Positions 4,532 to 20,989 of a stretch of DNA of 64,000 nucleotides are shown piece by piece; positions within the stretch are counted from its first letter, which is position 1; every line of letters begins with the position of its first letter. The notes under the pieces were generated by a model, which was not told the DNA's origin, searched no databases, and was given only the letters and a program-made list of their open reading frames with translations. Source of the stretch: Variovorax sp. HW608 (GTDB lineage: Bacteria; Pseudomonadota; Gammaproteobacteria; Burkholderiales; Burkholderiaceae_C). Position numbers and translations under genes: made by a program. The stretch lies in the NCBI RefSeq assembly GCF_900090195.1, contig NZ_LT607803.1, forward strand, positions 682,001-746,000, read 5' to 3'.

Positions 4532-5218
4532 CTATTCCAGGAGTGCGCGGCGCACGTCCTCCTGCAGGCTCCGCAGGTGGGTGCGCATGGCCCCGCGTGC
4601 CCGCTCCGGATCACGGGCGCGCAAGGCCTCGACAATCATGCCGTGCTCGTCATGGTTCTCGCGCTGCCTGTGCAAGGGGCTGTGCAGGCGGAAGAGCCGC
4701 GCGTTCACACGCAGTTCCTCAACCAGCCGCGGGAACACCACGTTGCCACTGGCGTTGGCAATCACCGAGTGGAAGCGGTCGTCGAAATGGAAGTGTTCGA
4801 TCTCGCTGTGCTCGCCGGAATGCAGCGCCCGGATGTCCCTCTCCAGCTCGTCGATCTGCGCGTCCGTGATCTTGGCCACGGCGAGCGCAATGCACTCGCA
4901 TTCAATGACCTCGCGCGCCCGCATGCAGTCGAAATACTCCTTGGTCCCCAGGGCGCGAACCGCATAGGAGCGCGCGTCGCGGCGCACCAGAAGCCCTTCG
5001 CCGGCCAAGCGCACCAGGGCCTCGCGCATGGGCGTGCGGGAGATGCGCAACTCCTCGGCCAGCCGCGCCTCCTGCAGGGGACTGCCTGCCGATATCTGGC
5101 GATCCAGGATCAGCGTGCGCAACCGGTCGTAGGCCTGCTCTGCAAGGCTGGCCGATCGCACCTCCAGCGGCGCGATGGTGATGGTGGCGGGTTGCGCCGG
5201 ACTGGGAAGGCTTGGCAT
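4532..5218 (-). CDS. GntR-family transcriptional regulator, FCD (FadR) subgroup
   Basis: A 228-residue regulator starting at the ATG at 5216-5218 (MPSLPSPAQ). The winged helix covers about residues 25-85, with LAEELRISRTPMREALVRL as the recognition region. The C-terminal FCD ligand-binding domain, about residues 95-220, contains the acid/His positions that usually hold a metal (FHFDDRFHSVI and ENHDEHGMIVEAL). FCD regulators typically sense small carboxylates or amino acids and repress catabolic genes. It sits at the end of the leftward hydrolase/permease/binding-protein/lyase run. The GTATAC element at 9332-9354 fits the operator style of this subgroup. Ligand unknown. Confidence 0.88.
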   Translation of the reverse strand: MPSLPSPAQPATITIAPLEVRSASLAEQAYDRLRTLILDRQISAGSPLQEARLAEELRISRTPMREALVRLAGEGLLVRRDARSYAVRALGTKEYFDCMRAREVIECECIALAVAKITDAQIDELERDIRALHSGEHSEIEHFHFDDRFHSVIANASGNVVFPRLVEELRVNARLFRLHSPLHRQRENHDEHGMIVEALRARDPERARGAMRTHLRSLQEDVRRALLE

Positions 5219-5285
5219 GCGAAGGTAAGCGAAGGGACGAGAGCGGCAAAAGCTTATCAGGCCCGCGCGGCGCCTACGGCCGTCA

Positions 5286-6740
5286 TCACAGCCATTTCTG
5301 CAGCGGATTGCCCGCATTGGGGGGGCGCGGCCGCAGGCAAGGCAGAAATGCGCCGCTGCCGGGCGCCGCCTGGAACTCGCCGTCCTTCCAGACGATACGC
5401 CCGCGCGACACGGTCACGCCCGGCCAGGCCCGCAGCTTCATGCCCTCGTAGGGCGTGTAGTCGGCTGCGTGGTGGAGCATCGAGTTGTCGATGGTCCTTT
5501 CCTCACCATCGGGGAACACGTCCCAGATCACCAGGTCGGCGTCGCTGCCCACCGCGATCGTGCCCTTGCGCGGGTAGAGTCCATACAGGCGCGCCGCATT
5601 GGTGGCGGTGAGCTCGACAAAGCGGTGCACATCGATGCGGCCAGCGAGCACGCCTTCGCTCATCAGCAGCGGCAGCCGGGTTTCCACGCCGGGGATGCCG
5701 TTGGGGATGCGGTCGAAGGAGGCATCCTTGCCGGCCACCCGCTTGCCATCGGGTCCGTTCATGTTGAAGGGCGCATGGTCGGACGAGACGATGGTGAACA
5801 GGCCACTGGCGAGCCCGTTCCAGATGAAGGGCTGGTTCGCCTTGTCGCGCGGCGGCGGGCTGCAGATGCAGCGCGCGCCGTGCATCGGATCCTCGTGGTC
5901 GATGCCCAGGTCCTCGGCGCTCAGGAAGAGGTACTGCGGGCAGGTCTCTGCATGGATGGACAGGCCACGACCGCGCGCCCAATGGATCTGCTCCACCGCC
6001 TCGCGCCCGGACACGTGGACGATCAGGATGGGCGTGTCCACGAGTTCCGCCAGCGCGATCGCGCGATGCGTCGCCTCGCGCTCCACCGCCATGGGCCGAG
6101 AGCTCGCGTGGTAGCGCGGCGCGGTGAGGCCGGCGTCGAGCAACTGCTCGGTGAGCCATGCGATGCAATCGCTGTTCTCCGCGTGGATCATGGTCATTGC
6201 CCCGTGCTTGCGCGCGGCGGCCAGGACCTCGATGACCTGCCGGTCGTTCAGCTTCATGTCGTCGTACGTCATGTAGATCTTGAAGGAGGTGTAGCCCTTC
6301 TCGATCAACGACGGCAGTTCGCGCTGGGTGACGTCGCGCGTGGCGTCCGACACGATCAGATGGAACGCATAGTCGATCACCGCCTTGCCTTCCGCGCGGC
6401 GGTGGTAGTCGTCCACCGCCTCATGGAGGCTGTGGCCGCGCTGCTGCGCGGCGAATGGCAGCACCGTGGTCGTGCCGCCGCAGGCCGCCGAGCGGGTGCC
6501 GGTGTAGAAGTCGTCGGCAAAGCGCGACCCGTCGCTGGTGGGCTGGTCGAAGTGGCAGTGGCCATCGACGCCGCCGGGCGTCACCAGCCGGCCGCCGGCA
6601 TCGAGTTCGCGCTCCGCCTGGCCTTCGAGGCCCTGGGCAATGGCGCAGATGCGCCCGTCGCGCACGCCGATGTCGGCACGGTAGCGGTCGCCGACTGTAG
6701 CGATGTCCGCGTTGCGGATGATCAGGTCGTAGCTGCTCAT
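5286..6740 (-). CDS. Dihydropyrimidinase / D-hydantoinase family cyclic amidohydrolase
   Basis: A 484-residue cytosolic TIM-barrel metal hydrolase of the kind that opens cyclic amides such as dihydropyrimidines or hydantoins. The start is the ATG at 6738-6740. Binuclear-metal ligands are visible: H61 and H63 (DGHCHF), the lysine likely to be carboxylated K154 (SFKIYMTYDD), H186 (MIHAEN), a second His in HAETCPQYL, and Asp in SSDHAPF. It begins 10 bases after the permease stop, so the two are co-transcribed. A second enzyme of this family is encoded at 14984-16435 in the canonical pyrimidine operon. The gene context here (ABC permease, DapA-like lyase, amine oxidase fusion) suggests a substrate other than dihydrouracil. 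That is inference. Confidence 0.85.
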   Translation of the reverse strand: MSSYDLIIRNADIATVGDRYRADIGVRDGRICAIAQGLEGQAERELDAGGRLVTPGGVDGHCHFDQPTSDGSRFADDFYTGTRSAACGGTTTVLPFAAQQRGHSLHEAVDDYHRRAEGKAVIDYAFHLIVSDATRDVTQRELPSLIEKGYTSFKIYMTYDDMKLNDRQVIEVLAAARKHGAMTMIHAENSDCIAWLTEQLLDAGLTAPRYHASSRPMAVEREATHRAIALAELVDTPILIVHVSGREAVEQIHWARGRGLSIHAETCPQYLFLSAEDLGIDHEDPMHGARCICSPPPRDKANQPFIWNGLASGLFTIVSSDHAPFNMNGPDGKRVAGKDASFDRIPNGIPGVETRLPLLMSEGVLAGRIDVHRFVELTATNAARLYGLYPRKGTIAVGSDADLVIWDVFPDGEERTIDNSMLHHAADYTPYEGMKLRAWPGVTVSRGRIVWKDGEFQAAPGSGAFLPCLRPRPPNAGNPLQKWL

Positions 6741-6750
6741 GGCCAATCCT

Positions 6751-7473
6751 TCATCGCTGCTCGAGCGCGGTCTCGATCGGCGCGGAAACCGGCTCGCTGG
6801 AGCTTCCGTAGGCACGGCCGTAGTGGCGCTCGATGCGCCGCTGGACGAAGTCCCAGGCACTGGTCATCAGCAAGTAGTAGACGGCAGCGACAAGGAAGAG
6901 CTCGAGCACCATGAACTTTTCCTGGATCAGCACCTGCGTGCGCCGCAGCAGCTCTTCCATCGAGATCACCGAAGTGATGGAGGTGGTCTTGAGCAGCCCG
7001 TTGATGCTGTTGCCCAGCGTCGGCACGATCAGTCGCATGGCCTGCGGCAGGATGATGTAGCGCATGGTCTGGGCACTGCTGAAGCCCACCGCGCGGGCCG
7101 CGTTGGTCTGGCCGACCGGTATCGACTGGATGCCGGCGCGGATGATCTCCGCCAGGTAGGCGGCTTCGTTGAGGATCAGCCCCAGCAGCGCCGACTCGAT
7201 CACCGACAGCTTCACGCCCAGCTGGGGCAGGCCGGTGTAGATGATGATGAGCTGCACCAGGAGCGGCGTGCCGCGGAACACCCAGATGTAGAAGTGCGCC
7301 GGCCCCGAGAGCCATCGATGGCTGGACAGGCGGGCCAGCGCGAGCGCGCAGCCGACTACCAGCCCGCCCGCGATGGCCGCCAGCGTGAGCCACAGCGTGG
7401 TCACGGCGCCGCTCAGCAGATAGGGGTTGAACAGGTAGTCGGCGAACCCCGACCAGCTCCAGCCTTGTCCCAT
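6751..7473 (-). CDS. Polar amino-acid-type ABC transporter permease (HisM/GlnP family)
   Basis: A 240-residue inner-membrane permease with about five hydrophobic segments. The EAA loop that docks the ATPase is clear (EAAYLAEIIRAGIQSIPVGQ). It belongs to the HisMQ/GlnP class importing amino acids or related small organic acids and works with the periplasmic binding protein encoded just upstream at 7506-8336. Members usually act as hetero- or homodimers with a separate ATPase. No intact ATPase gene lies in this module, so the permease must borrow one from elsewhere or the importer is not functional. The gene precedes the cyclic amidohydrolase by 10 bases. Confidence 0.88.
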   Translation of the reverse strand: MGQGWSWSGFADYLFNPYLLSGAVTTLWLTLAAIAGGLVVGCALALARLSSHRWLSGPAHFYIWVFRGTPLLVQLIIIYTGLPQLGVKLSVIESALLGLILNEAAYLAEIIRAGIQSIPVGQTNAARAVGFSSAQTMRYIILPQAMRLIVPTLGNSINGLLKTTSITSVISMEELLRRTQVLIQEKFMVLELFLVAAVYYLLMTSAWDFVQRRIERHYGRAYGSSSEPVSAPIETALEQR

Positions 7474-7505
7474 GGAAACTCCTGGCGATGCGGATGGCGG
7501 GGCGC

Positions 7506-8336
7506 TCAGCCCGCCGGGCCTTTCACGGCGACGGCGCCGTCGATGGCCTTGACGCCGTACTGGTCGAACAGCTTCTGGAAGCTGCCATCGGCCTTCATGT
7601 CGTTGAGCACCTTGGCCATGGCGTCGGCGAGCTCACGGTTCTTGGTGGCCAGCGCGACGGGCGTCGGGAAGAGGCCGTGCAGCACACGCTCGAACTCGCC
7701 GCGCTTCTGGTATTCGGCGCCGGTGGAGTCGATCGAGAGCGCCACATCGACCTGCCCCGCGCGCAGCGCCTGGAAGGCCATCGCGAAGTTCTCGAAGGTG
7801 CGGATGGTCAGCCCCTTCAGGCCCTTGTCGGTGAGCTGCTTGTCGAGCTCTCGCGCCTTGCGCTCCTCGAAGCCGCCGATCTCCACGCCGATGCTCTTGC
7901 CCGACAGGTCCTCCGGCTTGGCGATCTTCAGCGGGTTGCCGCGCGTGGTGCTGATGCTGATGGCCTGGTCTTCGTAGATCAGCATTTGCATGAGCTTGGC
8001 GCGCTCCTCGGTGTAGAAGATGCCGGTGTTGATCACGTCCCAGCGGCCGGCCTGAAGGCCCGGGATCATGGCCGAGAACTCGATGCGCACGTACTCGGGC
8101 GTGAGGCACAGGCGCTTGGCGATGGCCTCGCCCAACTCGACCCGCATGCCCTTGAGCGCACCGGTCTGGTCGACGAACTGCATCGGCGGCAAGGTCGGAT
8201 TGACGGACATCACGAGCGTGCCCTTCTTGACCAGCGCTGAATCGGGCACCGGCGACTTGCAGGCCTGCGCCTGCGCGCTGCCTGCGCCAAGGAGGAAGAG
8301 GACCGAGGCCGACGCCAGGGCGGGGAGCAGTTTCAT
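7506..8336 (-). CDS. Periplasmic substrate-binding protein, ABC family 3
   Basis: A 276-residue family 3 solute-binding protein. A Sec signal peptide occupies residues 1-23 (MKLLPALASASVLFLLGAGS then AQA for cleavage). The mature part has the bilobal family pattern: GTLVMSVNPTLPPMQF at the start of lobe 1, the hinge segment AGRWDVINTGI, and AGQVDVALSIDSTG in lobe 2. Such proteins bind polar amino acids, opines or small carboxylates and deliver them to a HisM-type permease, here encoded 32 bases downstream. It follows the lyase gene by 58 bases in the same direction, so the run from 9291 to 5286 is probably one transcript. Confidence 0.87.
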   Translation of the reverse strand: MKLLPALASASVLFLLGAGSAQAQACKSPVPDSALVKKGTLVMSVNPTLPPMQFVDQTGALKGMRVELGEAIAKRLCLTPEYVRIEFSAMIPGLQAGRWDVINTGIFYTEERAKLMQMLIYEDQAISISTTRGNPLKIAKPEDLSGKSIGVEIGGFEERKARELDKQLTDKGLKGLTIRTFENFAMAFQALRAGQVDVALSIDSTGAEYQKRGEFERVLHGLFPTPVALATKNRELADAMAKVLNDMKADGSFQKLFDQYGVKAIDGAVAVKGPAG

Positions 8337-8394
8337 GGTGAGTCCTTCGGGGAAGTGAACGAGGCGGCGAGAGGGAAGCGAAAGGTTCTGGGGC

Positions 8395-9291
8395 CTAGGC
8401 GCGGATCGAGTCGATCAGCTCCAGGCGCTCGAGCTCGCGGCGCAGGTCGGCCGCATCGGCATCGGGCAGCGGCAGGCGCGGCGCGCGCGGCTTGCCCACC
8501 GGCAGGCCCATCATCGACAGGCCGTCCTTGGAGGCGGCCACGTAGCGGTGGCCGCCGACCCAGCGGACGATCGGCAGCATCTTCTTGTAGAGCGCGAGCG
8601 CCGCGGGCATGTCGTGCTCGTCGGCGACCAGCTCGAACAGGCGCGCCGACATCTTCGGGATGAGGTTCGAGCACACGGCCACCCAGCCCTGCGCGCCGAG
8701 CCAGAAGGATTCGTAACCGAGGATGCCGGCGAAGACCGTCATGCGGTCGCCGCACAGCTCGATGATGTCGCGCACCCGTGTCACTTCGAGTGTCGACTCC
8801 TTGATGTAGCGGCAGTTGTCGATGCGCGAGAGGCGCGCGACCAGCTCGGGTTGCAGGTCCACGTTGGCCGTTGCGGGGTTGTTGTAGACCATGATCGGGA
8901 TGCCGATGGCCTCGCCTACCTTGCGATAGTGCTCGAACAACTCGTCTTCGGTGGGCGTGCTGTAGAAGGGCGGAATGATCATCACGCCGTCGGCCCCCAT
9001 GGCCTCGGCTTCGCGGCTCAGCCGCACGCATTCGTCGGTCCACTCCGCGCCCGTGCCGATCAGCACGGGCACGCGTTTTGCGGCGGTATCGATACAGGTT
9101 TCGATCACCCGTTGGCGCTCCTCGGGCGTGAGCGACAGGAACTCTCCAGTGCTTCCCAAGGGGATCAGTCCGTGAATTCCCTCCCGGATCTGCCAATCGA
9201 CCAGCTTCTTGAGCGCCGGCACGTCGACGTGCTTGCCGTCCGCGGTCATGGGGGTGATGAGCACCGTATAGGTGCCTCGGAACGCTGTCAT
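8395..9291 (-). CDS. DapA/NAL-family class I aldolase or lyase
   Basis: A 298-residue protein of the dihydrodipicolinate synthase / N-acetylneuraminate lyase family. The Schiff-base lysine (RYIKEST), the proton-relay tyrosine (VYNNPATA) and the GSTGEF substrate-carboxylate loop are all present. The family includes DapA, sugar-acid aldolases, and the pyrroline-hydroxy-carboxylate deaminase of trans-4-hydroxyproline catabolism. That last role is worth considering because a D-amino-acid/opine-type oxidoreductase is divergently encoded at 9397, as in hydroxyproline gene clusters. No hydroxyproline epimerase or semialdehyde dehydrogenase is present in the window, so the substrate stays open. Start ATG at 9289-9291, next to the operator-like element. 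Confidence 0.85.
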   Translation of the reverse strand: MTAFRGTYTVLITPMTADGKHVDVPALKKLVDWQIREGIHGLIPLGSTGEFLSLTPEERQRVIETCIDTAAKRVPVLIGTGAEWTDECVRLSREAEAMGADGVMIIPPFYSTPTEDELFEHYRKVGEAIGIPIMVYNNPATANVDLQPELVARLSRIDNCRYIKESTLEVTRVRDIIELCGDRMTVFAGILGYESFWLGAQGWVAVCSNLIPKMSARLFELVADEHDMPAALALYKKMLPIVRWVGGHRYVAASKDGLSMMGLPVGKPRAPRLPLPDADAADLRRELERLELIDSIRA

Positions 9292-9331
9292 CGGGCAGTC
9301 CTGGCTGAAAAATGGGATGGCGATTGGTTCG

Positions 9332-9354
9332 GTATACGTGTAGTATACGTATAC
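9332..9354. promoter_or_regulatory. Triple GTATAC element, candidate FCD-regulator operator
   Basis: Three copies of the self-complementary hexamer GTATAC lie at 9332-9337, 9343-9348 and 9349-9354. The last two abut to form a perfect 12-bp palindrome. The element sits in the 105-base divergent region between the lyase gene (start 9291) and the oxidoreductase fusion (start 9397). GT(N2)AC-type palindromes suit FadR-subgroup GntR proteins, and such a regulator is encoded at 4532-5218. Binding is inferred. Confidence 0.65.
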
Positions 9355-9396
9355 ATTCAAACCCGTCAACGATCTTTTCTTGTCGTTTTTCAGCCC

Positions 9397-12345
9397 ATGC
9401 GCGCCCGACTCACGCACCCATCGATCGCCGCCAGCGGACGACCCATCCGCTTCTGGTACGACGGCCAGCCGGTGGACGGACTGGACGGCGAGACCATTGC
9501 GGCGTCGCTTGCCGCCGCGGGCATCCGGCAGATGCGCCACACGCGCAGCGGCGAACGGCGCGGCCTCTACTGCGGGATGGGCGCCTGCTTCGATTGCCTG
9601 GTGACGGTGGACGGGCGCGCCAGCCAGCGCGCCTGCCTGACCAAGGCCGCCGAGGGCCTGCAGGTCCGCTCGGCCATGCCGGCCGGAACGGCGACCGACC
9701 CGCTGCGCCCGTTGACGCCGGACGCGGGAACAGAGCCCAGCCGGCAGGACGTGGACGTCCTGGTGGTGGGGGCGGGCCCGGCCGGGCTTTCCGCGGCGCT
9801 CGCCGCGGCTCGCTCGGGGGCGAAGGTGCTGCTGCTGGACGAACGTCCGCAGCCCGGTGGCCAGTTCTACAAGCCGCTGGCACCTTCGCACGAGGCGACC
9901 GGGCCCCTCGATCGCCAGTTCGCCGCCGGCCTGGCGCTGGAATATCAGGTGCGGCAGGCCGGCGTGCGCATCGAGCAAGGCGCCCAGGTCTGGGCGGCCT
10001 TCTCGCCGCGCGAGATCGGCGCACTCGTCGACGGCCGCGCACACGTCATCGGCTGCAGCCAGTTGGTCATCGCCCCGGGCGCCTACGAACGCCCGGTGCC
10101 CTTCCCCGGCTGGACGCTGCCGGGCGTCATGACCACGGGGGCCGGCCAGACATTGGCGCGGGCCTATCGCGTCGCCCCTGGCCAGCGGGTGCTGGTCGCG
10201 GGCAATGGCCCGCTGAACCTGCAGCTGGCCGCCGAGCTGCTGGCGGGCGGCGCGCAGGTGGTGGCGGTCCTGGAGTCGGCACCGCGGCCCACGGCGCGGC
10301 AATGGCGGGCCATGTTGACGGCGGCACGCACCGCGCCCGACCTGCTGCGCGACGGCCATCGCTACCTGCGCCAGCTTCGCGCCCGTGGCGTGCCGGTGCT
10401 GTGGGGCTGCGCCGTGACCCGCGCCGAAGGCCACGACGGCGTGGAGTGCGTGCATGCAGCGCTGCTCGATGCACACGGCCGCCCCTTGCCTTCCGGCACC
10501 CGGCGTTTCGATGTCGACACGCTGTGCCTGGGCTACGGCTTCATTCCCTCTACCGAGCTGGCACGCATGCTCGGCTGCGAGCACCGGCTGGCGCAGCGCC
10601 ACCTTGGCTACCTCGCCACCGTCACGCAGGATGATGGCGCCAGCAGCCTGCCAGGCGTCTATGTGGTGGGCGACGGGGCCGACATGGGCGGCTCGCGCGT
10701 GGCCCTGGCACGCGGGACGCTCGCCGGCACGGCGGCCGCGCGCAACCTGGGGCGACGCGCACCCGAACCCACCGAGGCGGTGGCGCTGCTGCGGCGCGCC
10801 TCGAGCTTCCAGCAGGCGCTTTGGACGATCTACCAGGCGCCGCCGGTGTCGCTTTCCTGCATGTCGGACGAAACGGTGCTCTGTCGCTGCGAGGAGATCT
10901 CCTTCGGCTCGGTGCGCGAGCAGATCCGTGCGGGTCGCGACACGCTGGCCGCACTCAAGCGCAACACGCGGCTGGGCATGGGGCGCTGCCAGGGCCGCTA
11001 CTGTGCGGTCACCGCCGCGCGGCTGGTGGGCGAGATGACCGGGCAACCGCCCGGCGTGGAGCAGTACCTTGCCCCCCGCCCGCCGGCCAAGCCAGTCCCG
11101 GCCGGCGCGCTGGGCTTCGAGAAGCCCGAATGGGGTGGCCACAGGCCGGCCATCACGCCCAACCTGGCGCGGCCAGTCTCGGTGCCCCCCCTGGAAAGCA
11201 ACCTGCAGACCGAGGTGCTGGTGATCGGCGCCGGCGTGCTTGGCTCCTGCCTGGGCTACTACCTCTCTCAAGCGGGCATGGATGTGACGGTGGTCGACCG
11301 CGACGACCTCAACCTGCAGGCCTCCGGCGCCAACGCGGGAAGCCTTCACGTGCAGCTGCTGTCCTTCGACTTTGGCTCGCGCGCGCAGGAAGGCGGCGGT
11401 CCCGCCGCAGCCACGCTGCCCCTGGGTCCGATGTCCGTGCGCCTGTGGCAACAGATCGAGGACGACTGCGGCGAGGACCTGGAAATCAAGATCACAGGCG
11501 GCCTCATGGTCGCCGACAGCGATGAAGGCATGCGCTTCCTGCAGGCCAAGGCAGCACTGGAGCGCAGCCACGGCATCGACGCGCAAGTCATCGACGGTGC
11601 CGAGCTGCGGCGTCTCGCGCCCGCTCTGTCCGCCCAGCTCCTCGGCGCGGAGCTATGCCCCTTGGAAGGCAAGATCAACCCGCTGCGCGCCACCTACGCC
11701 GTGGCCCGCCGCGCGCAGGAGCAAGGCGCCCGTATGCTGCGCGGCTGCGACGTGCAGGTCATCGAGCGGCTGCCGGGCAACGCTGCCGGCTTCAATGTAC
11801 GCACTTCGCGCGGCACCATCCGCGCCGGGCGCGTTATCAACGCGAGCGGCGCGTGGTCCAGCACCGTGGGCGACATGCTGGGTGTGAAGATCCCGGTCAA
11901 GGGCGCGCCCCTGCAGATGATCGTGACCGAGCCGGCGCCGGCCTTGGTCGATCATCTGATCGCGCATGCCAATCGGCACTTGAGCCTCAAGCAGGCGGCG
12001 AGCGGCGCGCTGCTGGTCGGCGGCGGCTGGACCGCGGCCTTCGATGAGTCCATGCGTCTCAACCGCGCCGAGCGCGCGAGCATCGAGGGCAACCTCTGGG
12101 TGGCCCGCCAGGTGCTGCCCGCCATCGCCGGCCTGCACATCGTGCGCTGCTGGGCGGGCATGAACGTGAACATCGACGGCGCGCCGATCCTGGGCGAAGT
12201 GCCGGGCCTGCCCGGCTTCTACAACGCCGTCACATCCAACGGCTACACGCTCGCGCCGATCACCGCGCGTCTCGTGACGGACCTCATCACACGCGGGCGC
12301 ACCGAGATCGACATCACGCCCTTCCTGATCGACCGTTTCCTCTGA
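9397..12345 (+). CDS. Three-part FAD/[2Fe-2S] amino-acid dehydrogenase fusion (HcnABC/OoxAB-like)
   Basis: A 982-residue protein joining modules that are usually separate subunits of cyanide synthase, opine oxidase or D-hydroxyproline dehydrogenase. Residues 1-90: a small [2Fe-2S] domain with C59, C64, C67 and C80 (LYCGMGACFDC). Residues 118-480: an FAD/NAD(P)-type flavoprotein with GAGPAG at 125-130. Residues 490-545: a BFD-like [2Fe-2S] segment with C496, C498, C531 and C536. Residues 600-982: a DAO-type flavoenzyme with GAGVLG at 611-616. The expected reaction is oxidation of a secondary or D-amino acid to an imine, with electrons passed to a membrane acceptor. The start is the first ATG inside the domain, at 9397. 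The M20 hydrolase follows after 5 bases. I read no stop or frameshift between modules. Confidence 0.85.
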   Translation: MRARLTHPSIAASGRPIRFWYDGQPVDGLDGETIAASLAAAGIRQMRHTRSGERRGLYCGMGACFDCLVTVDGRASQRACLTKAAEGLQVRSAMPAGTATDPLRPLTPDAGTEPSRQDVDVLVVGAGPAGLSAALAAARSGAKVLLLDERPQPGGQFYKPLAPSHEATGPLDRQFAAGLALEYQVRQAGVRIEQGAQVWAAFSPREIGALVDGRAHVIGCSQLVIAPGAYERPVPFPGWTLPGVMTTGAGQTLARAYRVAPGQRVLVAGNGPLNLQLAAELLAGGAQVVAVLESAPRPTARQWRAMLTAARTAPDLLRDGHRYLRQLRARGVPVLWGCAVTRAEGHDGVECVHAALLDAHGRPLPSGTRRFDVDTLCLGYGFIPSTELARMLGCEHRLAQRHLGYLATVTQDDGASSLPGVYVVGDGADMGGSRVALARGTLAGTAAARNLGRRAPEPTEAVALLRRASSFQQALWTIYQAPPVSLSCMSDETVLCRCEEISFGSVREQIRAGRDTLAALKRNTRLGMGRCQGRYCAVTAARLVGEMTGQPPGVEQYLAPRPPAKPVPAGALGFEKPEWGGHRPAITPNLARPVSVPPLESNLQTEVLVIGAGVLGSCLGYYLSQAGMDVTVVDRDDLNLQASGANAGSLHVQLLSFDFGSRAQEGGGPAAATLPLGPMSVRLWQQIEDDCGEDLEIKITGGLMVADSDEGMRFLQAKAALERSHGIDAQVIDGAELRRLAPALSAQLLGAELCPLEGKINPLRATYAVARRAQEQGARMLRGCDVQVIERLPGNAAGFNVRTSRGTIRAGRVINASGAWSSTVGDMLGVKIPVKGAPLQMIVTEPAPALVDHLIAHANRHLSLKQAASGALLVGGGWTAAFDESMRLNRAERASIEGNLWVARQVLPAIAGLHIVRCWAGMNVNIDGAPILGEVPGLPGFYNAVTSNGYTLAPITARLVTDLITRGRTEIDITPFLIDRFL

Positions 12346-12350
12346 AAGCC

Positions 12351-13601
12351 ATGACCGACACCTCCGCCGCAAAGGCCATCCTGCGCCAATTCATCGAAGC
12401 GCATTTCGACGAGCAGGTTCAGACCCTCGCCCGCCTGGTGCAATGCCCGTCCGACAACCCACCGGGCGACTGCGCACCGCATGCCAATCTCACAGCCGGC
12501 CTGCTCGGGGCCATGGGCTTCGAGGTCGAGCGCCATCCCGTGCCGCCGGAAGTGGCTGCGCAGCACGGCATGCGCAGCGTACTCAACCTGATCGTGCGCG
12601 AACGCTTCGGCGAAGGCGGACCTGTCGTGGCGCTCAATGCCCACGGCGACGTGGTGCCCCCCGGCGAGGGCTGGAGCACCGACCCTTACGGCGGCGAAGT
12701 GCGGGACGGCTGGCTCTACGGCCGTGGCGCCGCGGTGTCGAAGTCCGACTTCACCACCTACGCCTTCGCAATGCGTGCGCTCAAGCAAGCTGCCGCCGAA
12801 GGCGTGCCCCTGTCGGGCAGCCTCGAGCTGCACCTGACCTACGACGAGGAAACCGGCGGCATGACCGGTCCGGGCTGGATCCTGTCCCAAGGCCTGAGCC
12901 GGCCCGACTATGTGCTGTCCGCCGCCTTTTCACACCATGTGGTGGTCGCGCACAACGGCTGCCTGCATCTGGAGGTGACGCTGCGAGGCAAGTCCGCGCA
13001 CGCGGCGCGCCCCGACACCGGCCATGACGCGATAGAGGCCGCCGCCACGCTGCTGCCCGCCCTGTACCGCCACCGCGACGCGCTGGCCGGTCGGCCCTCG
13101 CAGACGCCGGGCATCACGCATCCGACCTTGGTGGTCGGCCTGATCGAAGGCGGGATCAACACCAACGTCGTGGCCGACCGCCTCAGCCTGCGCATCGACC
13201 GGCGCATCGTGCCAGAGGAATCGCCCGAGGCTGTGGAAGCCGAGCTGCATGAAGTCATCGAGTCGGCCTGCCGCGGCCTGCCGGGCATCACCGTCGACAT
13301 CCGCCGCATCCTGCTGGCGCGGCCCTTTGCGCCGGCACCCGGCGCGGCGGAACTGGCCGAGCTCATGTGCAGCGAAGCCAGCGCGGTGATGGGCAAGCAG
13401 GTCACGCCGATCGGTGTGCCGCTGTACACCGATGCGCGCCTGTACAGCGAGGCCGGCATTCCCACCGTGATGTACGGCGCCGGCCCCGAGTCGCTGCTCG
13501 AGGCAAACGGCCACCGGGCCGACGAGCGCGTTCCACTGGCCGAACTGCGGCAGGCCACGCAGGTCGTCGCCAACACCCTTCTCAGACTCTTGCAACGCTG
13601 A
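12351..13601 (+). CDS. M20-family metallohydrolase (ArgE/DapE/ACY1-like)
   Basis: A 416-residue amidohydrolase-type protein of the M20 family, which removes acyl or aminoacyl groups from amino acids. Visible ligands: H98 and D100 (LNAHGDVVPPG), the catalytic E166-E167 pair (YDEETGG) and a late His (NGHRADE). The bridging metal Asp normally found in GRGAxD is replaced: the motif reads GRGAAVSKSD, with Val at 129. That would weaken or change metal binding unless D133 substitutes. The dimerisation lid is intact (LRGKSAHAARPDTGHDA). It sits 5 bases after the oxidoreductase fusion in the same operon, suggesting that it releases or processes the amino acid that the fusion oxidises. Confidence 0.83.
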   Translation: MTDTSAAKAILRQFIEAHFDEQVQTLARLVQCPSDNPPGDCAPHANLTAGLLGAMGFEVERHPVPPEVAAQHGMRSVLNLIVRERFGEGGPVVALNAHGDVVPPGEGWSTDPYGGEVRDGWLYGRGAAVSKSDFTTYAFAMRALKQAAAEGVPLSGSLELHLTYDEETGGMTGPGWILSQGLSRPDYVLSAAFSHHVVVAHNGCLHLEVTLRGKSAHAARPDTGHDAIEAAATLLPALYRHRDALAGRPSQTPGITHPTLVVGLIEGGINTNVVADRLSLRIDRRIVPEESPEAVEAELHEVIESACRGLPGITVDIRRILLARPFAPAPGAAELAELMCSEASAVMGKQVTPIGVPLYTDARLYSEAGIPTVMYGAGPESLLEANGHRADERVPLAELRQATQVVANTLLRLLQR

Positions 13602-13707: not shown

Positions 13708-14970
13708 CTATCCTGCCACGCCGGCGCGTTCAAGCATGGCGTGCAGCAGCACGTTGCAACCGGCCTTGATGTGCTCGGGCTTGGCGTCCTCGATTTCGTT
13801 GTGGCTGATGCCGTCCTTGCATGGGATGAAGATCATTCCGGTCGGTGCCAGGCGCGCCATATAGACGGCGTCGTGGCCGGCGCCTGAAACCGCGCGCATG
13901 TTGCTGTAGCCGAGTTTTTCCGCCGCGCGCGCAACTGCGTCCACACACTCTGCATGGAAGCGCTGCGCCGGATAGCCCGATACCTGGTCAATCCGGATGG
14001 ACAGGCCGGTCTCGCCGCTCAGCCTGGCAGCCACGGTGCGAATGTCGGCGTCCATGGCGTCGCACAGTTCGTCGCTGGCATTGCGCAGGTCGATCGAGAA
14101 CTTGACCTGGCCCGGAATCACGTTGCGGCTGTTCGGATGCACCTGCACCATGCCGACGGTGCCGCGGCCGTGCGGCGGGTGGCGATGCGCGCAGGCCACC
14201 ACCTCCTGCATCAGCCGGGACGCGACCTGCAGTGCATCCTTGCGCAGTGCCATCGGTGTCGGGCCGGCGTGCGCTTCCATGCCGATGACGGTGCAGTCGT
14301 ACCAGCGAATGCCCAGGACGCCGGTCACCACGCCGATGGTCTTGTCGTTGTCCTCGAGCACCGGCCCCTGCTCGATGTGGGTTTCGAAGTACGCGCCGAT
14401 CGGGTGGGCGCCAGGTTCCTCGGTGCCGAGGTAGCCGATGCGCTCGAGCTCGCCCCTGACCGTCTTGCCCTCGGTATCGGTGGCTGCATAGGCATGGTCG
14501 AGCGTGAAGGCCTTGGCGAACACGCCCGAACCCATCATCACCGGAACGAAGCGCGAGCCCTCTTCGTTGGTCCAGAAGGCCACTTCGATCGGCGCCTCGG
14601 TTTCGATGCCGTGGTCGTTCAGGGTGCGCACCACCTCGATGCCGGCCAGCACGCCGTAGTTGCCGTCGAACTTGCCGCCGGTGGGCTGGGTGTCGATGTG
14701 GCTGCCGGTGACGATGGGCGGCAGGCTGTTGTCGCGGCCCGGGCGGCGCATGAAGACATTGCCGATCTTGTCGATCCTCACGGTCATGCCGGCCTCGCGC
14801 GCCCAGCCGGTGACCAGGTCGCGACCCTGCTTGTCCAGGTCGGTCAGCGTCAGGCGGCACACGCCGCCTTTGGGGGTAGCGCCAATTCGGGCCAATTCCA
14901 TCAGCGAGGCCCACAGTCGCTCGCCATCGATGCGCAGTTGGTGGATGGCCGTGGCCGTGTTCGTGTCCAT
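13708..14970 (-). CDS. hyuC: Beta-ureidopropionase / N-carbamoyl amino acid amidohydrolase
   Basis: A 420-residue M20-type amidase that removes the carbamoyl group from N-carbamoyl-beta-alanine, the third step of reductive pyrimidine breakdown. Metal-site segments are present: TGSHIDTQPTGGKFDGNYG, TNEEGSRF, EAHAGPTPM and the late SHNEIED. The start is the ATG at 14968-14970 after GAGGACTCCC. It lies 13 bases after the dihydropyrimidinase gene at the end of the preT-preA-permease-hydA-hyuC run. The family also contains allantoate and hydantoin-derived carbamoylase enzymes. The operon makes the pyrimidine role the best reading. Confidence 0.88.
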   Translation of the reverse strand: MDTNTATAIHQLRIDGERLWASLMELARIGATPKGGVCRLTLTDLDKQGRDLVTGWAREAGMTVRIDKIGNVFMRRPGRDNSLPPIVTGSHIDTQPTGGKFDGNYGVLAGIEVVRTLNDHGIETEAPIEVAFWTNEEGSRFVPVMMGSGVFAKAFTLDHAYAATDTEGKTVRGELERIGYLGTEEPGAHPIGAYFETHIEQGPVLEDNDKTIGVVTGVLGIRWYDCTVIGMEAHAGPTPMALRKDALQVASRLMQEVVACAHRHPPHGRGTVGMVQVHPNSRNVIPGQVKFSIDLRNASDELCDAMDADIRTVAARLSGETGLSIRIDQVSGYPAQRFHAECVDAVARAAEKLGYSNMRAVSGAGHDAVYMARLAPTGMIFIPCKDGISHNEIEDAKPEHIKAGCNVLLHAMLERAGVAG

Positions 14971-14983
14971 GGGAGTCCTCTGT

Positions 14984-17975
<2,992 letters not shown>

Positions 17976-18100
17976 GGTTTTGTTTCCTGGTGATTCCAGT
18001 GGGGTTGCGGCTCGGTGATCAGGGGCCATTGGAGTACCTTCGCGCAGCAGCGCTTCGGTATTCGCCTTCGGAGCGGCCGGGCGGCTCATGCGGTGGGTTC

Positions 18101-19423
18101 TCAGGCCGTGCTGGCCGCCTCGGTGTTCACGCGCATCGGGTTATTGGGGTGGGTGGTCCAGTTGGCGTATTCGCCGCTGACGCGAAGGCCGGTGCGCTTG
18201 TCGATTTCGCCGGCCGCGAGCGAGCGCATCGTGATGGTGTTGGGTACCGGGCAGATCGACACGCAGAGGTTGCAGCCGACGCACTCCTCCTCCTTGACCT
18301 CGAAGTGGCGCTTGCCGTCCCTGGTGGCCGTGATCGCCTGGTGCGAGGTGTCCTCGCACACCACGTGGCAGCGGCCGCACTGGATGCACGAGTCCTGGTT
18401 GATGACTGCCTTGTCGATGTGGTTCAGGTTGAGCGACTTCCAGTCCTTGACGGTCCCGACCGCGGCGCCGCGGAATTCTTCGATCGAGCGCAAGCCCTGC
18501 TGGTCCATGAAGTTGGACAGGCCGTCGCACATGTCCTGCACGATCCTGAAGCCGTAGACCATGGCGGCCGTGCAGACTTGCACCGTGCCGCACCCCAGCG
18601 CGATGAACTCGGCCGCGTCACGCCAGGTGGTGACGCCACCGATGCCTGATATGGGCAGGCCGGCGGTGGTCGGATCGCGCGCGATCTCGGCCACCATGTT
18701 GAGCGCGATCGGCTTGACCGCCGGACCGCAGTAGCCCCCGTGCGAGCCCCAGCCGTCGGTGCTCGGGCTCATGACCATGCGATCGAGGTCGACGCCCATC
18801 ACCGAGTTGATGGTGTTGATCAGCGACACCGCATCGGCGCCGCCGGCCTTGGCCGCACGCGCGGGGTAGCGCACGTCGGTGATGTTGGGCGTGAGTTTGA
18901 CGATGGTCGGCAAGGTCGAGTAGTGCTTGCACCACTCGGTGACGCGCTGGATGTACTCGGGTACCTGGCCGACGGCAGCGCCCATGCCGCGCTCGCTCAT
19001 GCCGTGCGGACAGCCGAAGTTCAGCTCGATGCCGTCGGCGCCCACGTCTTCGACCATCGGGAGGATGCGCTTCCAGGACTCCTCCACCACCGGGACCATC
19101 AAGGACACCACCATGGCGCGATCGGGCCAGTTGCGCTTGACGCGCCGGATCTCGTCCAGGTTGGTGCGCAGCGGCCGATCGGTGATCAGCTCGATGTTGT
19201 TCAGACCGATGACACGGCGATCCTGCGACATGAGCGTCGAATAGCGCGGCCCGTTGACGTTGACCACCGCCGGGTCTTCACCCAGCGTCTTCCAGACCAC
19301 GCCGCCCCAGCCCGCCTCGAAGGCGCGGGTGACGTTGATTTCCTTGTCGGTGGGCGGCGCCGACGCGAGCCAGAACGGGTTCGGGCTCTTGATGCCCACG
19401 AAGTCGGTGCGCAGATCAGCCAT
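18101..19423 (-). CDS. preA: NAD-dependent dihydropyrimidine dehydrogenase, PreA subunit
   Basis: A 440-residue FMN/iron-sulfur subunit that reduces uracil and thymine to the dihydro forms, the first step of the reductive pathway. The N-terminal TIM barrel resembles dihydroorotate dehydrogenase and has the active-site cysteine loop NFGCPHGMSERGMG. The C-terminal ferredoxin domain has two [4Fe-4S] motifs, CIQCGRCHVVC and CVGCNLCVSICP. The start is the ATG at 19421-19423 (MADLRTDF), which overlaps the preT stop by 8 bases, implying translational coupling with its partner. The NCS1 permease follows downstream. Confidence 0.93.
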   Translation of the reverse strand: MADLRTDFVGIKSPNPFWLASAPPTDKEINVTRAFEAGWGGVVWKTLGEDPAVVNVNGPRYSTLMSQDRRVIGLNNIELITDRPLRTNLDEIRRVKRNWPDRAMVVSLMVPVVEESWKRILPMVEDVGADGIELNFGCPHGMSERGMGAAVGQVPEYIQRVTEWCKHYSTLPTIVKLTPNITDVRYPARAAKAGGADAVSLINTINSVMGVDLDRMVMSPSTDGWGSHGGYCGPAVKPIALNMVAEIARDPTTAGLPISGIGGVTTWRDAAEFIALGCGTVQVCTAAMVYGFRIVQDMCDGLSNFMDQQGLRSIEEFRGAAVGTVKDWKSLNLNHIDKAVINQDSCIQCGRCHVVCEDTSHQAITATRDGKRHFEVKEEECVGCNLCVSICPVPNTITMRSLAAGEIDKRTGLRVSGEYANWTTHPNNPMRVNTEAASTA

Positions 19424-20813
19424 GCTGGGTCTCCAGGGTCCGTTGGGATTGAGCCGCTGCAGCAGGATTGCGCAGCGCCAGATCGATGGACACGGCAGAA
19501 CGCTTGCCATGTTCGACCGCTTCCACGGTCAGGTCGCGCCCACCGTGGCGGCAGTCGCCGCCAGCCCAGACGCGGGCGAGGCTGGTCCGGCCGTCTTCAT
19601 CGGTGAGAATGCGCCCTCCCTTGAGTTCGATGGCCGCGCCAGCGGACTCGGCGACATAGGTCTGGCCGATCGCCCTGAGCACCATGTCGGCTTCGAGCGT
19701 GAAGCACTCGCCGGTCTCGACCAGCTTGCCTTCCTTCATCGCGGTGGCCGCAAAGCGCATGCCGCGCAGCACGCCGCCTTCGCTCATGACTTCCTTGGGT
19801 GCGGCCCAGTGGCGGATCGTCACGCCGTGGGTCTGCGCCCAGCGTTGCTCGACGGTTGAAGCCGACATGGATTCGGGCCCGCGCCGGTAGACGATGGTCA
19901 CGTGCTCGGCGCCGAGCAGGCGCGACTGCACCGCTGCGTCCACGGCGGTCATGCCGCCACCGATGACGACCACGCTCCGTCCCACCGGCACCTCGGCCGG
20001 ACTGGCGGCTTGGCGCAGTTCGGCAATGAACTCCACGGCATCGCGCAGGCCGGGAACCTGCGGCTCGGCAATGCCAAGTGCATTGACGCCCACGAGGCCC
20101 ATGCCCAGGAACACGGCGTCGAACCGGACGAGCAGGCTGTCGAGCGTGAAGTCGCGTCCCAGTTGCTGGCCGTTGTGGACCTCGATGCCGCCGATCGACA
20201 GCAGCCACTCGACTTCCCGCTGCGCGAAGTCGCCGGCCGTCTTGTAGGTGGCCAGGCCGTACTCGTTCAGCCCGCCAAGCTTGGGGCGGGCGTCGAACAG
20301 CGCAACTGAATGGCCCCGGCGCGCCAGCCCATGGGCACAGGCCAGCCCCGCCGGGCCCGCCCCGACCACTGCAATGCGCAAGCCCGTCGAAGCCGCGCGC
20401 GTGAAGAGCGGCGCACCCGGATTGGCGAAGTAGGCATCGGTGGCATAGCGCTGCAGCGCGCCGATCTCCACCGGCTTCTCCTCGTTGGTGTTGCGCACGC
20501 AGGCCTGCTCGCACAGCACCTCGGTGGGGCACACACGGGCGCACATTCCGCCGAGCGGGTTGGCCTCGAGGATCGCGCGTGCCGAGCCGCGGTTGTTGTC
20601 CTGGGCAATGCGCTGGATGAAGGTGGGGATGTCGATGCCCGTCGGGCAGGCCGCGGTGCAGGGTGCGTCAAAGCAGTAGTAGCAGCGCTCGGCCTCGATC
20701 AGCGCCTGGGCGCGCTTCAAGGGCGGATGGGCATCGCCGAAGTTCGTGGCGTAGTCGGCCAGATTCAGGCGAGCGGCGTGAATGCCGCAGGTGCGGGTGG
20801 AGGGTGTCTCCAT
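19416..20813 (-). CDS. preT: NAD-dependent dihydropyrimidine dehydrogenase, PreT subunit
   Basis: A 465-residue FAD/[4Fe-4S] protein that passes electrons from NAD(P)H to PreA. The N-terminal glutamate-synthase-type ferredoxin region holds the Cys sets CYYCFDAPC, CARVCP and CEQAC. Two Rossmann motifs follow: VVGAGPAGLACAHGLARRG for FAD and VVIGGGMTAVDAA for the nicotinamide nucleotide. The start is the ATG at 20811-20813 (METPSTRT), preceded by AAGGAG. An ATG 36 bases upstream has weaker support. It is the first gene of the pyrimidine operon and faces the TetR regulator across 243 bases with two operator-like palindromes. Confidence 0.92.
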   Translation of the reverse strand: METPSTRTCGIHAARLNLADYATNFGDAHPPLKRAQALIEAERCYYCFDAPCTAACPTGIDIPTFIQRIAQDNNRGSARAILEANPLGGMCARVCPTEVLCEQACVRNTNEEKPVEIGALQRYATDAYFANPGAPLFTRAASTGLRIAVVGAGPAGLACAHGLARRGHSVALFDARPKLGGLNEYGLATYKTAGDFAQREVEWLLSIGGIEVHNGQQLGRDFTLDSLLVRFDAVFLGMGLVGVNALGIAEPQVPGLRDAVEFIAELRQAASPAEVPVGRSVVVIGGGMTAVDAAVQSRLLGAEHVTIVYRRGPESMSASTVEQRWAQTHGVTIRHWAAPKEVMSEGGVLRGMRFAATAMKEGKLVETGECFTLEADMVLRAIGQTYVAESAGAAIELKGGRILTDEDGRTSLARVWAGGDCRHGGRDLTVEAVEHGKRSAVSIDLALRNPAAAAQSQRTLETQHG

Positions 20814-20989
20814 GGGGCTTCTCCTTGTGGCGGTCTCAGCAAGACTCATGCCGAAGCGCTGGCGATGGCCCGGTTCTCACCTTGGCGGGCGTCAGCCCGG
20901 CGCGGGCTCCCGGACCTTGATTTCCTTGGTACTCCGATTCGCATGGCTTGCTTCCTTTTGTCTGAAGTTGATGCGTGGAAGCGGGAAAA

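What the first reader, a model, noticed from the sequence alone, without database searches (positions are those of the whole stretch)
4532..13601. Possible undescribed catabolic module: cyclic amidohydrolase, DapA-like lyase, oxidoreductase fusion and M20 hydrolase
Seen: a leftward lyase-binding protein-permease-hydantoinase run and a rightward fusion-M20 pair share one promoter region. A GntR/FCD gene sits at the far end. Known: DapA-family deaminase plus this dehydrogenase type occurs in hydroxyproline breakdown, but there is no epimerase and no semialdehyde dehydrogenase here, while a hydantoinase and a deacylase are added. Inference: the pathway opens a cyclic amide, releases an N-substituted amino acid, oxidises it to an imine and cleaves or deaminates the product.
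Basis: partly seen in the sequence, partly recalled or inferred. Interest (0 to 1): 0.75.

Follow-up and report, generated by a model that had tools for sequence, protein, structure and literature searches.

The report
Regulated catabolic module with fused dehydrogenase
A set of seven soil-bacterium genes, kept together under one shared DNA switch in many related species, looks like an undescribed pathway that imports, unmasks, oxidises and splits an unusual amino compound, but the compound itself is not yet known.

Summary
In detail: GntR/FCD, hydantoinase, permease, binding protein and DapA-like enzyme run leftward; a 982-aa Fer2+Pyr_redox+BFD+DAO fusion and an M20 hydrolase run rightward. 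All seven keep order and strand in 33 of 35 scorable named relatives. Their shared promoter carries AGTATACGTATAC in 37 of 37 loci, window included. In Aureimonas the counterparts of both arms form one co-directional run. The steadiest core is DapA-like enzyme, fused dehydrogenase and transporter; unmasking hydrolases vary (hydantoinase, PTE-like, M20, DUF3830), and one Variovorax lacks the module's hydantoinase and M20. The fusion is a one-chain form of the αβγ flavin dehydrogenases known for proline, D-hydroxyproline and opines. It is not the standard hydroxyproline pathway: the genome has three other clusters for that, with DapA paralogs 29-32% identical. Most likely it imports a masked amino compound, unmasks it, oxidises C-N to an imine, and lets the DapA lysine split that. 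Opine-lactam use is the nearest precedent. Substrate unknown; new variant of a known kind.

The parts
4532..5317 (-). GntR/FCD transcriptional regulator (261 aa ORF; true start may lie further in)
   Evidence: Pfam FCD 6.9e-24, GntR 8.6e-16; present at that end of the block in 35 of 35 scorable named relatives
5286..6740 (-). hydantoinase / dihydropyrimidinase-type cyclic amidohydrolase (484 aa)
   Evidence: NF009941 798.7 bits (cut-off 647), TIGR02033 535.4 (cut-off 393.25); GxDxHxH, HVS/T and SSDH motifs in 45 of 45 homologs (three rows are duplicate contigs), SxK lysine in all 45, HAE in 43 and HCE in 2
6751..7473 (-). polar-amino-acid-type (PAAT) ABC permease (240 aa)
   Evidence: Pfam BPD_transp_1 4.2e-24; TIGR01726 105.3 bits, cut-off 42.2
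7506..8336 (-). periplasmic binding protein, SBP family 3 (276 aa)
   Evidence: Pfam SBP_bac_3 3.5e-30
8395..9291 (-). DapA-fold Schiff-base enzyme (298 aa), motifs YNNPATANVD and KEST
   Evidence: Pfam DHDPS 4.4e-60; AF2 pLDDT 93.3, best PDB match 3na8; K164, Y136 and E50 invariant in 25 aligned homologs
9292..9396 (.). divergent promoter/operator region
   Evidence: 105 bp, 46.7% GC against 68.5% in the module; sigma-70-like hexamers TTGACG-16-TATACT on the - strand, a consensus match only
9332..9354 (.). likely operator: half site GTATAC at 9332 and palindrome GTATACGTATAC at 9343-9354
   Evidence: AGTATACGTATAC in 37 of 37 loci (36 distinct sequences, window included), tandem arrangement in 35 of 37; only GTATACGTATAC in the window
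9397..12345 (+). one-chain amine/imino-acid dehydrogenase: [2Fe-2S] (γ-like), FAD/BFD (α-like) and DAO (β-like) domains, 982 aa
   Evidence: Pfam; AF2 pLDDT 87.9, 1y56_A TMt 0.85 and 1y56_B TMt 0.88; Cys motifs in 48 of 48 homologs, three rows being duplicate contigs
12351..13601 (+). M20 ArgE/DapE-type hydrolase, probably an N-deacylase (416 aa)
   Evidence: Pfam Peptidase_M20 and M20_dimer; TIGR01910 204.6 bits, just below its cut-off 217.6

Best explanation
A substrate-inducible catabolic module for a masked amino compound, perhaps plant-derived. (1) A binding-protein/ABC system of the polar-amino-acid/opine type imports it. (2) The hydantoinase opens a cyclic amide (or an equivalent hydrolase unmasks the nitrogen) and the M20 enzyme removes an N-acyl or N-carbamoyl group. 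(3) The one-chain flavin/iron-sulfur dehydrogenase oxidises the C-N bond of the freed (probably secondary or D-) amino acid to a 2-imino acid and passes the electrons on, probably to the respiratory chain. (4) The lysine of the DapA-fold enzyme attacks that imine by transimination, releasing the amine fragment and leaving a 2-keto acid, or cleaving/dehydrating it, so that products enter central metabolism. (5) The GntR/FCD regulator controls both arms from one tandem GTATAC operator. Shown: gene content, synteny, promoter-element conservation, domain make-up and conserved catalytic motifs. Inferred: reaction order, the protein that binds the operator, transimination, direction of regulation and the substrate class.
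For: Seven-gene order and strand kept in 33 of 35 scorable named relatives, flanks differing between groups. AGTATACGTATAC in 37 of 37 loci; GTATAC within 150 bp upstream of a module start in 9 of 13 loci from other groups. Counterparts of both arms in one co-directional run in Aureimonas, which has no M20; DapA-like gene directly before the fusion, same strand, in L124 and L125. Hydrolase slot varies: hydantoinase, PTE-like, M20, a second M20 type, DUF3830, or none recognised. The PTE-like alternative's best PDB relative is a 'phosphotriesterase-related protein'; PTER hydrolyses N-acetyltaurine (PMC11374699, abstract). The fusion folds like L-proline dehydrogenase α plus β and keeps both Cys motifs (48 of 48) and the RxW motif that PMC4575208 links to FMN. 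Schiff-base lysine of the DapA fold invariant in 25. Precedent, as proposed by the papers' authors: Ti-plasmid opine regions with lactam-opening hydantoinase genes (PMC10410297 section 13; PMC6733357 and PMC8554961 passages).
Against: No substrate, transcript or enzyme data. V. ginsengisoli keeps the core without the module's hydantoinase and M20, and L057 lacks the module M20, so the unmasking steps are dispensable. In pTiEU6 the proposed lactam-opening genes are hydantoinase/oxoprolinase A and B, a different family. L122, L125, L126 and L128 lack the operator hexamer near the starts tested. DapA relatives also occur without the fused dehydrogenase: 3 of the 15 loci (L102, L128, L129) and two plasmids, where CoA-transferase-type and acyl-CoA dehydrogenase genes lie near; so this enzyme need not always follow this dehydrogenase. 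The tree of DapA-fold proteins does not resolve its ancestry.
Confidence: 0.55

Rival explanations
1. Hydroxyproline-type variant: the fusion oxidises a D-hydroxyproline isomer (freed from an N-acyl or cyclic derivative) to a hydroxy-pyrroline carboxylate, which the DapA-like enzyme deaminates as in L-hydroxyproline breakdown.
For: Same core kinds of enzyme (αβγ dehydrogenase, DapA-like deaminase, PAAT ABC). The DapA paralog of the genome's first Hyp-type cluster (L134) shares YNNP and KEST with the module enzyme.
Against: No racemase/epimerase in the window and no semialdehyde dehydrogenase in the module; the genome has three other clusters with proline-racemase-family genes and their own DapA paralogs, 29-32% identical to the module's. 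The presumed β-subunit gene of the L134 cluster was not hit by the fusion at E 1e-9, while its α and γ counterparts were.
Confidence: 0.13
2. Gamma-hydroxy amino acid pathway: the fusion oxidises a γ-hydroxy amino acid such as 4-hydroxyglutamate or homoserine (freed from lactone, lactam or N-acyl forms) to a γ-hydroxy-α-keto acid, and the DapA-like enzyme is a retro-aldolase giving pyruvate plus glyoxylate or formaldehyde.
For: Products would need no dedicated semialdehyde dehydrogenase, and none is in the module. DapA-fold class I aldolases for such acids exist (recalled). The GSTGE loop has the Ser-Thr of E. coli NanA, not the Thr-Thr of DapA.
Against: A hydantoinase is not a typical lactonase (recalled); no aldolase-specific evidence; the dehydrogenases that PMC4575208 groups in this superfamily act on proline, D-hydroxyproline, opines or (HCN synthase) glycine (glycine recalled).
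Confidence: 0.13
3. Accessory arm of pyrimidine or hydantoin use: hydantoinase plus M20 degrade a dihydropyrimidine or hydantoin, helped by the neighbouring pyrimidine operon.
For: The hydantoinase passes the dihydropyrimidinase cut-offs; a reductive pyrimidine operon abuts the module here; an aminotransferase and an aldehyde dehydrogenase gene resembling the β-alanine pair (resemblance recalled) flank 3 of 4 gammaproteobacterial loci of one family.
Against: The pyrimidine operon has its own dihydropyrimidinase and N-carbamoylase (TIGR01879 425.7 bits), and its genes were not found in 40 related loci within the flanks held. The module M20 is ArgE/DapE-like. The conserved core (dehydrogenase, DapA-like enzyme, transporter) stays unexplained.
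Confidence: 0.09
4. Two unrelated arms that merely share a promoter.
For: The divergent layout holds only in some groups.
Against: Same block in 33 of 35 loci with differing flanks, conserved shared promoter element, and one co-directional run in Aureimonas.
Confidence: 0.03

Closest known systems
Flavin-containing opine dehydrogenase (OdhABC; Nox/Oox) clusters with opine import, and Ti-plasmid opine regions with proposed lactam-opening hydantoinase genes
   Same: ABC import, αβγ FAD/[2Fe-2S] dehydrogenase for an N-substituted amino acid (PMC4575208), and in some Ti plasmids a proposed ring-opening hydrolase (PMC10410297, PMC6733357, PMC8554961)
   Different: Here α, β and γ are one 982-aa chain; a DapA-fold enzyme and an M20 are added; the hydrolase is of the metal-dependent dihydropyrimidinase family, while pTiEU6 has a hydantoinase/oxoprolinase A and B pair
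Bacterial L-hydroxyproline pathway (epimerase, D-HypDH, pyrroline-hydroxycarboxylate deaminase, semialdehyde dehydrogenase)
   Same: DapA-like enzyme plus αβγ-type dehydrogenase plus PAAT ABC transporter
   Different: No epimerase in the window, no semialdehyde dehydrogenase in the module; hydantoinase and M20 added; separate Hyp-type clusters exist in the same genome
Archaeal L-proline dehydrogenase (PDB 1y56, chains A and B)
   Same: Close solved fold for both halves of the fusion; chain B is also the best sequence match in PDB
   Different: Two chains there, one here; 21 and 24% identity in the structural alignments
Reductive pyrimidine pathway / hydantoin use
   Same: A hydantoinase/dihydropyrimidinase and an M20 hydrolase
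   Different: No dihydropyrimidine dehydrogenase in the module; the M20 is ArgE/DapE-like; a true pyrimidine operon is next door
PTER, N-acetyltaurine hydrolase
   Same: The PTE-like hydrolase that stands in for the hydantoinase in L101 has a 'phosphotriesterase-related protein' as best PDB relative (9efa)
   Different: Not present in the window; it shows only what chemistry can fill that slot

Membership tests
L-hydroxyproline pathway | proline racemase-family epimerase in the cluster | tested here: not met
   PF05544 has four matches in the genome, none in the window
L-hydroxyproline pathway | α-ketoglutarate-semialdehyde dehydrogenase in the cluster | tested here: not met
   no aldehyde dehydrogenase among the seven genes
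L-hydroxyproline pathway | DapA-like deaminase orthologous to that of known Hyp clusters | tested here: inconclusive
   29-32% identity to the three own Hyp-type paralogs; shares YNNP and KEST with one of them; the tree does not resolve the deep splits
αβγ flavin dehydrogenase superfamily (HCN synthase, D-HypDH, OpnDH, L-ProDH) | C-X4-C-X2-C-X11~12-C and C-X-C-Xn-C-X4-C clusters, two dinucleotide-binding motifs, RxW in the β part | tested here: met
   48 of 48 homologs have both Cys motifs and at least two GxGxxG; R917 and W919 invariant in 25 rows. The gap in the second Cys motif is 32 residues here, against 15~20 stated in PMC4575208
αβγ flavin dehydrogenase superfamily | dehydrogenase activity with artificial acceptors; FAD/FMN content | not testable with these tools
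   needs purified protein
αβγ flavin dehydrogenase superfamily | separate subunits | tested here: not met
   one open frame of 982 aa in the window and full-length fused frames in the named relatives with complete loci; a split relative exists in L108
Opine catabolic system | opine substrate | not testable with these tools
   needs growth or enzyme assays
Hydantoinase/dihydropyrimidinase | family score and metal-binding motifs | tested here: met
   TIGR02033 535.4 bits, cut-off 393.25; motifs in 45 of 45 homologs
Hydantoinase/carbamoylase-type M20 (N-carbamoylase) | M20 of the TIGR01879 type | tested here: not met
   TIGR01879 (cut-off 204 bits) is not among the best 25 of 52 families for the module M20, the last of which has 62.5 bits; the neighbouring pyrimidine-operon M20 scores 425.7
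DapA (dihydrodipicolinate synthase) | Arg138 and Thr44-Thr45 (roles recalled); family cut-off | tested here: not met
   the Arg138 position is Thr and the Thr44 position Ser; TIGR00674 201.6 bits, just under its cut-off 206.15

The most novel reading that the evidence does not exclude
An undescribed catabolic pathway of plant-associated bacteria in which a one-chain αβγ flavin dehydrogenase and a DapA-fold lysine enzyme act in tandem on an opine-like ketimine (dehydrogenation, then transimination to a pyruvyl Schiff base plus free amine), fed by interchangeable unmasking hydrolases. One specific version: the natural substrate is an N-substituted β-alanine or its cyclic dihydropyrimidine-like form, giving β-alanine and pyruvate. 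Hints are the dihydropyrimidinase family, the PTER-like substitute (PTER also hydrolyses N-acetyl-β-alanine, PMC13311154, passages seen), and neighbours resembling β-alanine aminotransferase and semialdehyde dehydrogenase (resemblance recalled) in 3 of 4 gammaproteobacterial loci, which belong to one family.
Probability: 0.2. Interest if true: 0.7.

Novelty: new variant of a known kind. Interest (0 to 1): 0.5.

Why it matters
It is a conserved catabolic unit with a clear core, a clear promoter element and a defined set of swap-in hydrolases, found in Variovorax, Azospirillum and Rhizobium among others; several of the plasmid records come from roots or agricultural soil. Finding its substrate would name a nutrient these bacteria take up, give functions to many genes now annotated only as 'dihydropyrimidinase', 'dapA' or 'FAD-dependent oxidoreductase' (for example Azospirillum genes annotated as lysine-biosynthesis dapA), and test whether DapA-fold enzymes generally take over imines made by αβγ flavin dehydrogenases.

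Tried and rejected
Standard hydroxyproline pathway: rejected because the epimerase and semialdehyde dehydrogenase are absent and three other clusters in the genome fit it. Reductive pyrimidine pathway: the neighbouring operon already has its steps. Bona fide DapA: the Arg138 and Thr44 positions differ. RNA elements: no Rfam match at gathering threshold in 1-22000. Acyl-homoserine-lactone use (Variovorax is known for it, recalled): considered because lactonase/acylase-like hydrolases swap in the slot, but a three-term search gave one paper, seen only as a listing, and nothing in the sequence favours it. Tree of DapA-fold proteins: built, but deep branches are weak and long, so it is not used to argue ancestry. 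DUF3830: no paper holds the term and the best PDB sequence match has E 0.16. No description of the module was seen in paper searches; some listings were partial (25 of 480, 10 of 17, 10 of 99, 10 of 188) and the library is open-access only.
Full report
What is there. The window lies in a single-contig genome of 7.73 Mb. Leftward from 9291: a DHDPS/DapA-fold protein, a family-3 binding protein, one PAAT-type permease, a dihydropyrimidinase-type hydantoinase (start at 6740) and a GntR/FCD regulator. Rightward from 9397: a 982-aa protein with Fer2_4, Pyr_redox_2, Fer2_BFD and DAO domains, then an ArgE/DapE-type M20 hydrolase. Neighbours are an M23 peptidase and a response regulator further left and a reductive pyrimidine operon on the right (N-carbamoylase, dihydropyrimidinase, NCS1 permease, two dihydropyrimidine dehydrogenase-type subunits).

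Is it a unit? The fused dehydrogenase is rare: full-length in 4 of 299 genomes sampled from the family, own genome included; in the own genus 2 of 4 have it. A scan of the named species-genome collection with an alignment of four fusions gave 40 loci: 27 labelled Variovorax, the rest Pseudacidovorax, Xenophilus, Polaromonas, Rhodoferax, Verminephrobacter and one unassigned proteobacterial MAG. The two peptide patterns used are strict, so distant fusions were missed. Five loci are cut inside the module or hold only part of it (L070, L071, L072, L076, L081). Of the other 35, 33 carry all seven genes in the same order and strands. The exceptions are L057, without M20, and L061 (V. ginsengisoli), without hydantoinase and M20. 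In L079 an apparent insertion-sequence gene sits between regulator and hydantoinase. Flanking genes fall into different sets between groups. An eighth gene, an ABC ATPase, follows 17-68 bp downstream in 21 of the 39 loci with sequence there. The window lacks it; the genome's nearest relative of that ATPase, 73% identical, sits beside another binding protein and two permeases.

A conserved switch. The 105-bp divergent promoter holds GTATAC at 9332 and the palindrome GTATACGTATAC at 9343-9354, overlapping a sigma-70-like -10 box. AGTATACGTATAC is present in all 40 promoters of the window's group examined, window included. Three of these repeat the same contigs; without them 37 of 37 loci (36 distinct sequences) have it, and 35 have the upstream half site at the same spacing. 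It is the only GTATACGTATAC in 64 kb. In other groups GTATAC falls within 150 bp upstream of a module start in 9 of 13 loci scored, not in L122, L125, L126 or L128. The starts were listed after I had seen the hexamer positions, L121 was not scored because its start was not matched, and L156 and L162 are close relatives. In Azospirillum the two hexamers keep the 11-bp spacing. That the GntR/FCD protein binds there is inference.

The module elsewhere. Matches to the DapA-like protein at E <= 1e-70 or 1e-75 were found in 5 of 398 phylum genomes, 5 of 385 of the class of G679, 2 of 369 of the own class, 4 of 151 and 8 of 151 of two families; these samples overlap and some include the own genome. 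At E <= 1e-60, 17 of 72,556 plasmid records match, 12 of them Azospirillum, Rhizobium or Variovorax. Of the 15 loci compared, 11 have the fused dehydrogenase and 10 of these a GntR gene; L108 has it split; L102, L128 and L129 lack it. The transporter is PAAT-ABC or TRAP. The hydrolases change: hydantoinase (L103, L120-L122, L126, L127, Azospirillum, Aureimonas), PTE-like (L101, L109, L124), ArgE-type M20 (L125), a second M20 type (L101, L124, L127), DUF3830 (L101, L124, L126, L127, Azospirillum, Aureimonas), or none recognised with the queries used (L123). Hydantoinase and PTE-like were not seen together in these loci. In Aureimonas binding protein, permease, DapA-like gene, fusion, ATPase, hydantoinase and DUF3830 lie in one co-directional run. 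L108 has a split dehydrogenase with a 44% DapA relative and PAAT-type ABC genes. A second kind of cluster (L102, L128, L129, Thioclava L160, Comamonadaceae OTU4NAUVB1 L159) has the DapA relative without the fusion, near acyl-CoA dehydrogenase, MaoC and a second DapA-like gene, with a CoA-transferase gene in all but L159, where none is annotated.

What the parts do. The fusion keeps both iron-sulfur motifs in 48 of 48 homologs. Its AlphaFold model (25-sequence alignment, pLDDT 87.9) matches sarcosine oxidase chains first and both chains of L-proline dehydrogenase 1y56 (TM 0.85 and 0.88 by target length), with the flavin opine dehydrogenase 7fgp at rank 34. It reaches the cut-off of none of the best 25 of 139 NCBIfam families. 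PMC4575208 (abstract and sections 3 and 22 read) relates opine, D-hydroxyproline and archaeal proline dehydrogenases and HCN synthase, made of separate subunits. The DapA-fold model (pLDDT 93.3) is closest to 3na8, a 'putative dihydrodipicolinate synthetase' of Pseudomonas. It keeps the lysine and tyrosine of the Schiff-base site, but has Thr and Ser where DapA has Arg138 and Thr44 (residue roles recalled). The hydantoinase keeps its metal motifs. The M20 motifs searched were found in 40 of 40, counting DEEI for DEET/S in L125.

Why not hydroxyproline. The genome has four proline-racemase-family genes in three clusters, each with ABC transporter genes, an aldehyde dehydrogenase-like gene and a DapA paralog. 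Those paralogs are 29-32% identical to the module's over a joint alignment (32-34%). One shares YNNP and KEST with the module enzyme, which speaks for related imine chemistry. The tree is too weak to say more.

Are the hydrolases essential? V. ginsengisoli's genome has hydantoinase relatives of 67 and 50% and an M20 relative of 53%; control L068 has the module genes at 86% and 81% plus the 53% M20. L057's genome keeps the hydantoinase (84%) but has only a 54% M20. Pseudacidovorax NS331 (L076) gave 65% and 53%, but its contig starts inside the fusion and the assembly is a draft. So the core persists without them in at least one species, if that cluster is functional.

Interpretation. The simplest reading joins known chemistry: import, unmask, oxidise C-N, then use a DapA-type lysine on the imine. 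Authors of Ti-plasmid papers propose that hydantoinase-type genes open opine lactams: in pTiEU6 beside an ABC system for succinamopine (PMC6733357 passages), and in a region with transporter and dehydrogenase genes tentatively assigned to rideopine (PMC8554961 passage; PMC10410297 section 13). So 'works like opine-lactam catabolism' is fair, while 'is an opine pathway' is untested. The PTE-like substitute, nearest in PDB to a phosphotriesterase-related protein, and PTER's activity on N-acetyltaurine (PMC11374699 abstract) and N-acetyl-β-alanine (PMC13311154, title, abstract start and passages) suggest that the slot needs amide hydrolysis rather than hydantoin opening in particular. The substrate stays open.

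Noticed in passing
window 13708-20849 (-): Reductive pyrimidine operon (N-carbamoylase, dihydropyrimidinase, NCS1 permease, two dihydropyrimidine dehydrogenase-type subunits) abutting the module here; its genes were not found in the 40 related loci within the flanks held
   Followed up: partly
L134, L135, L136 (own genome, 1.18, 1.52 and 6.39 Mb): Three separate hydroxyproline-type clusters with proline-racemase-family genes; the DapA paralogs of the second and third are near-identical copies
   Followed up: partly
L102, L128, L129, L159, L160: A second cluster type: module-type DapA near acyl-CoA dehydrogenase, MaoC, a second DapA-like gene and mostly a CoA-transferase, with TRAP or ABC transporter genes, without the fused dehydrogenase
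   Followed up: partly
L101, L124, L126, L127, L128, L129, L156, L158, L162: DUF3830, a family without assigned function and without a paper in the library searched, recurs in these loci; likely a pathway protein
   Followed up: partly
L137 (own genome 0.86 Mb): Hydantoinase paralog (63%) next to a gene 55% identical to the arylmalonate decarboxylase/Asp-Glu racemase-like gene that neighbours the hydantoinase in L102
   Followed up: no
L138 (own genome 4.75 Mb): M20 paralog (53%) near an NCS1-like permease (31%) and an N-carbamoylase-like gene; possibly a purine/allantoin cluster (judged by eye)
   Followed up: no
L103, L120, L121: Class III aminotransferase plus an aldehyde dehydrogenase-like gene, resembling the β-alanine pair (recalled), flank the module in 3 of 4 gammaproteobacterial loci, all of one family
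   Followed up: partly
L156 and L162 (Azospirillum plasmids): The module DapA relative is annotated as lysine-biosynthesis dapA, probably a misannotation
   Followed up: no
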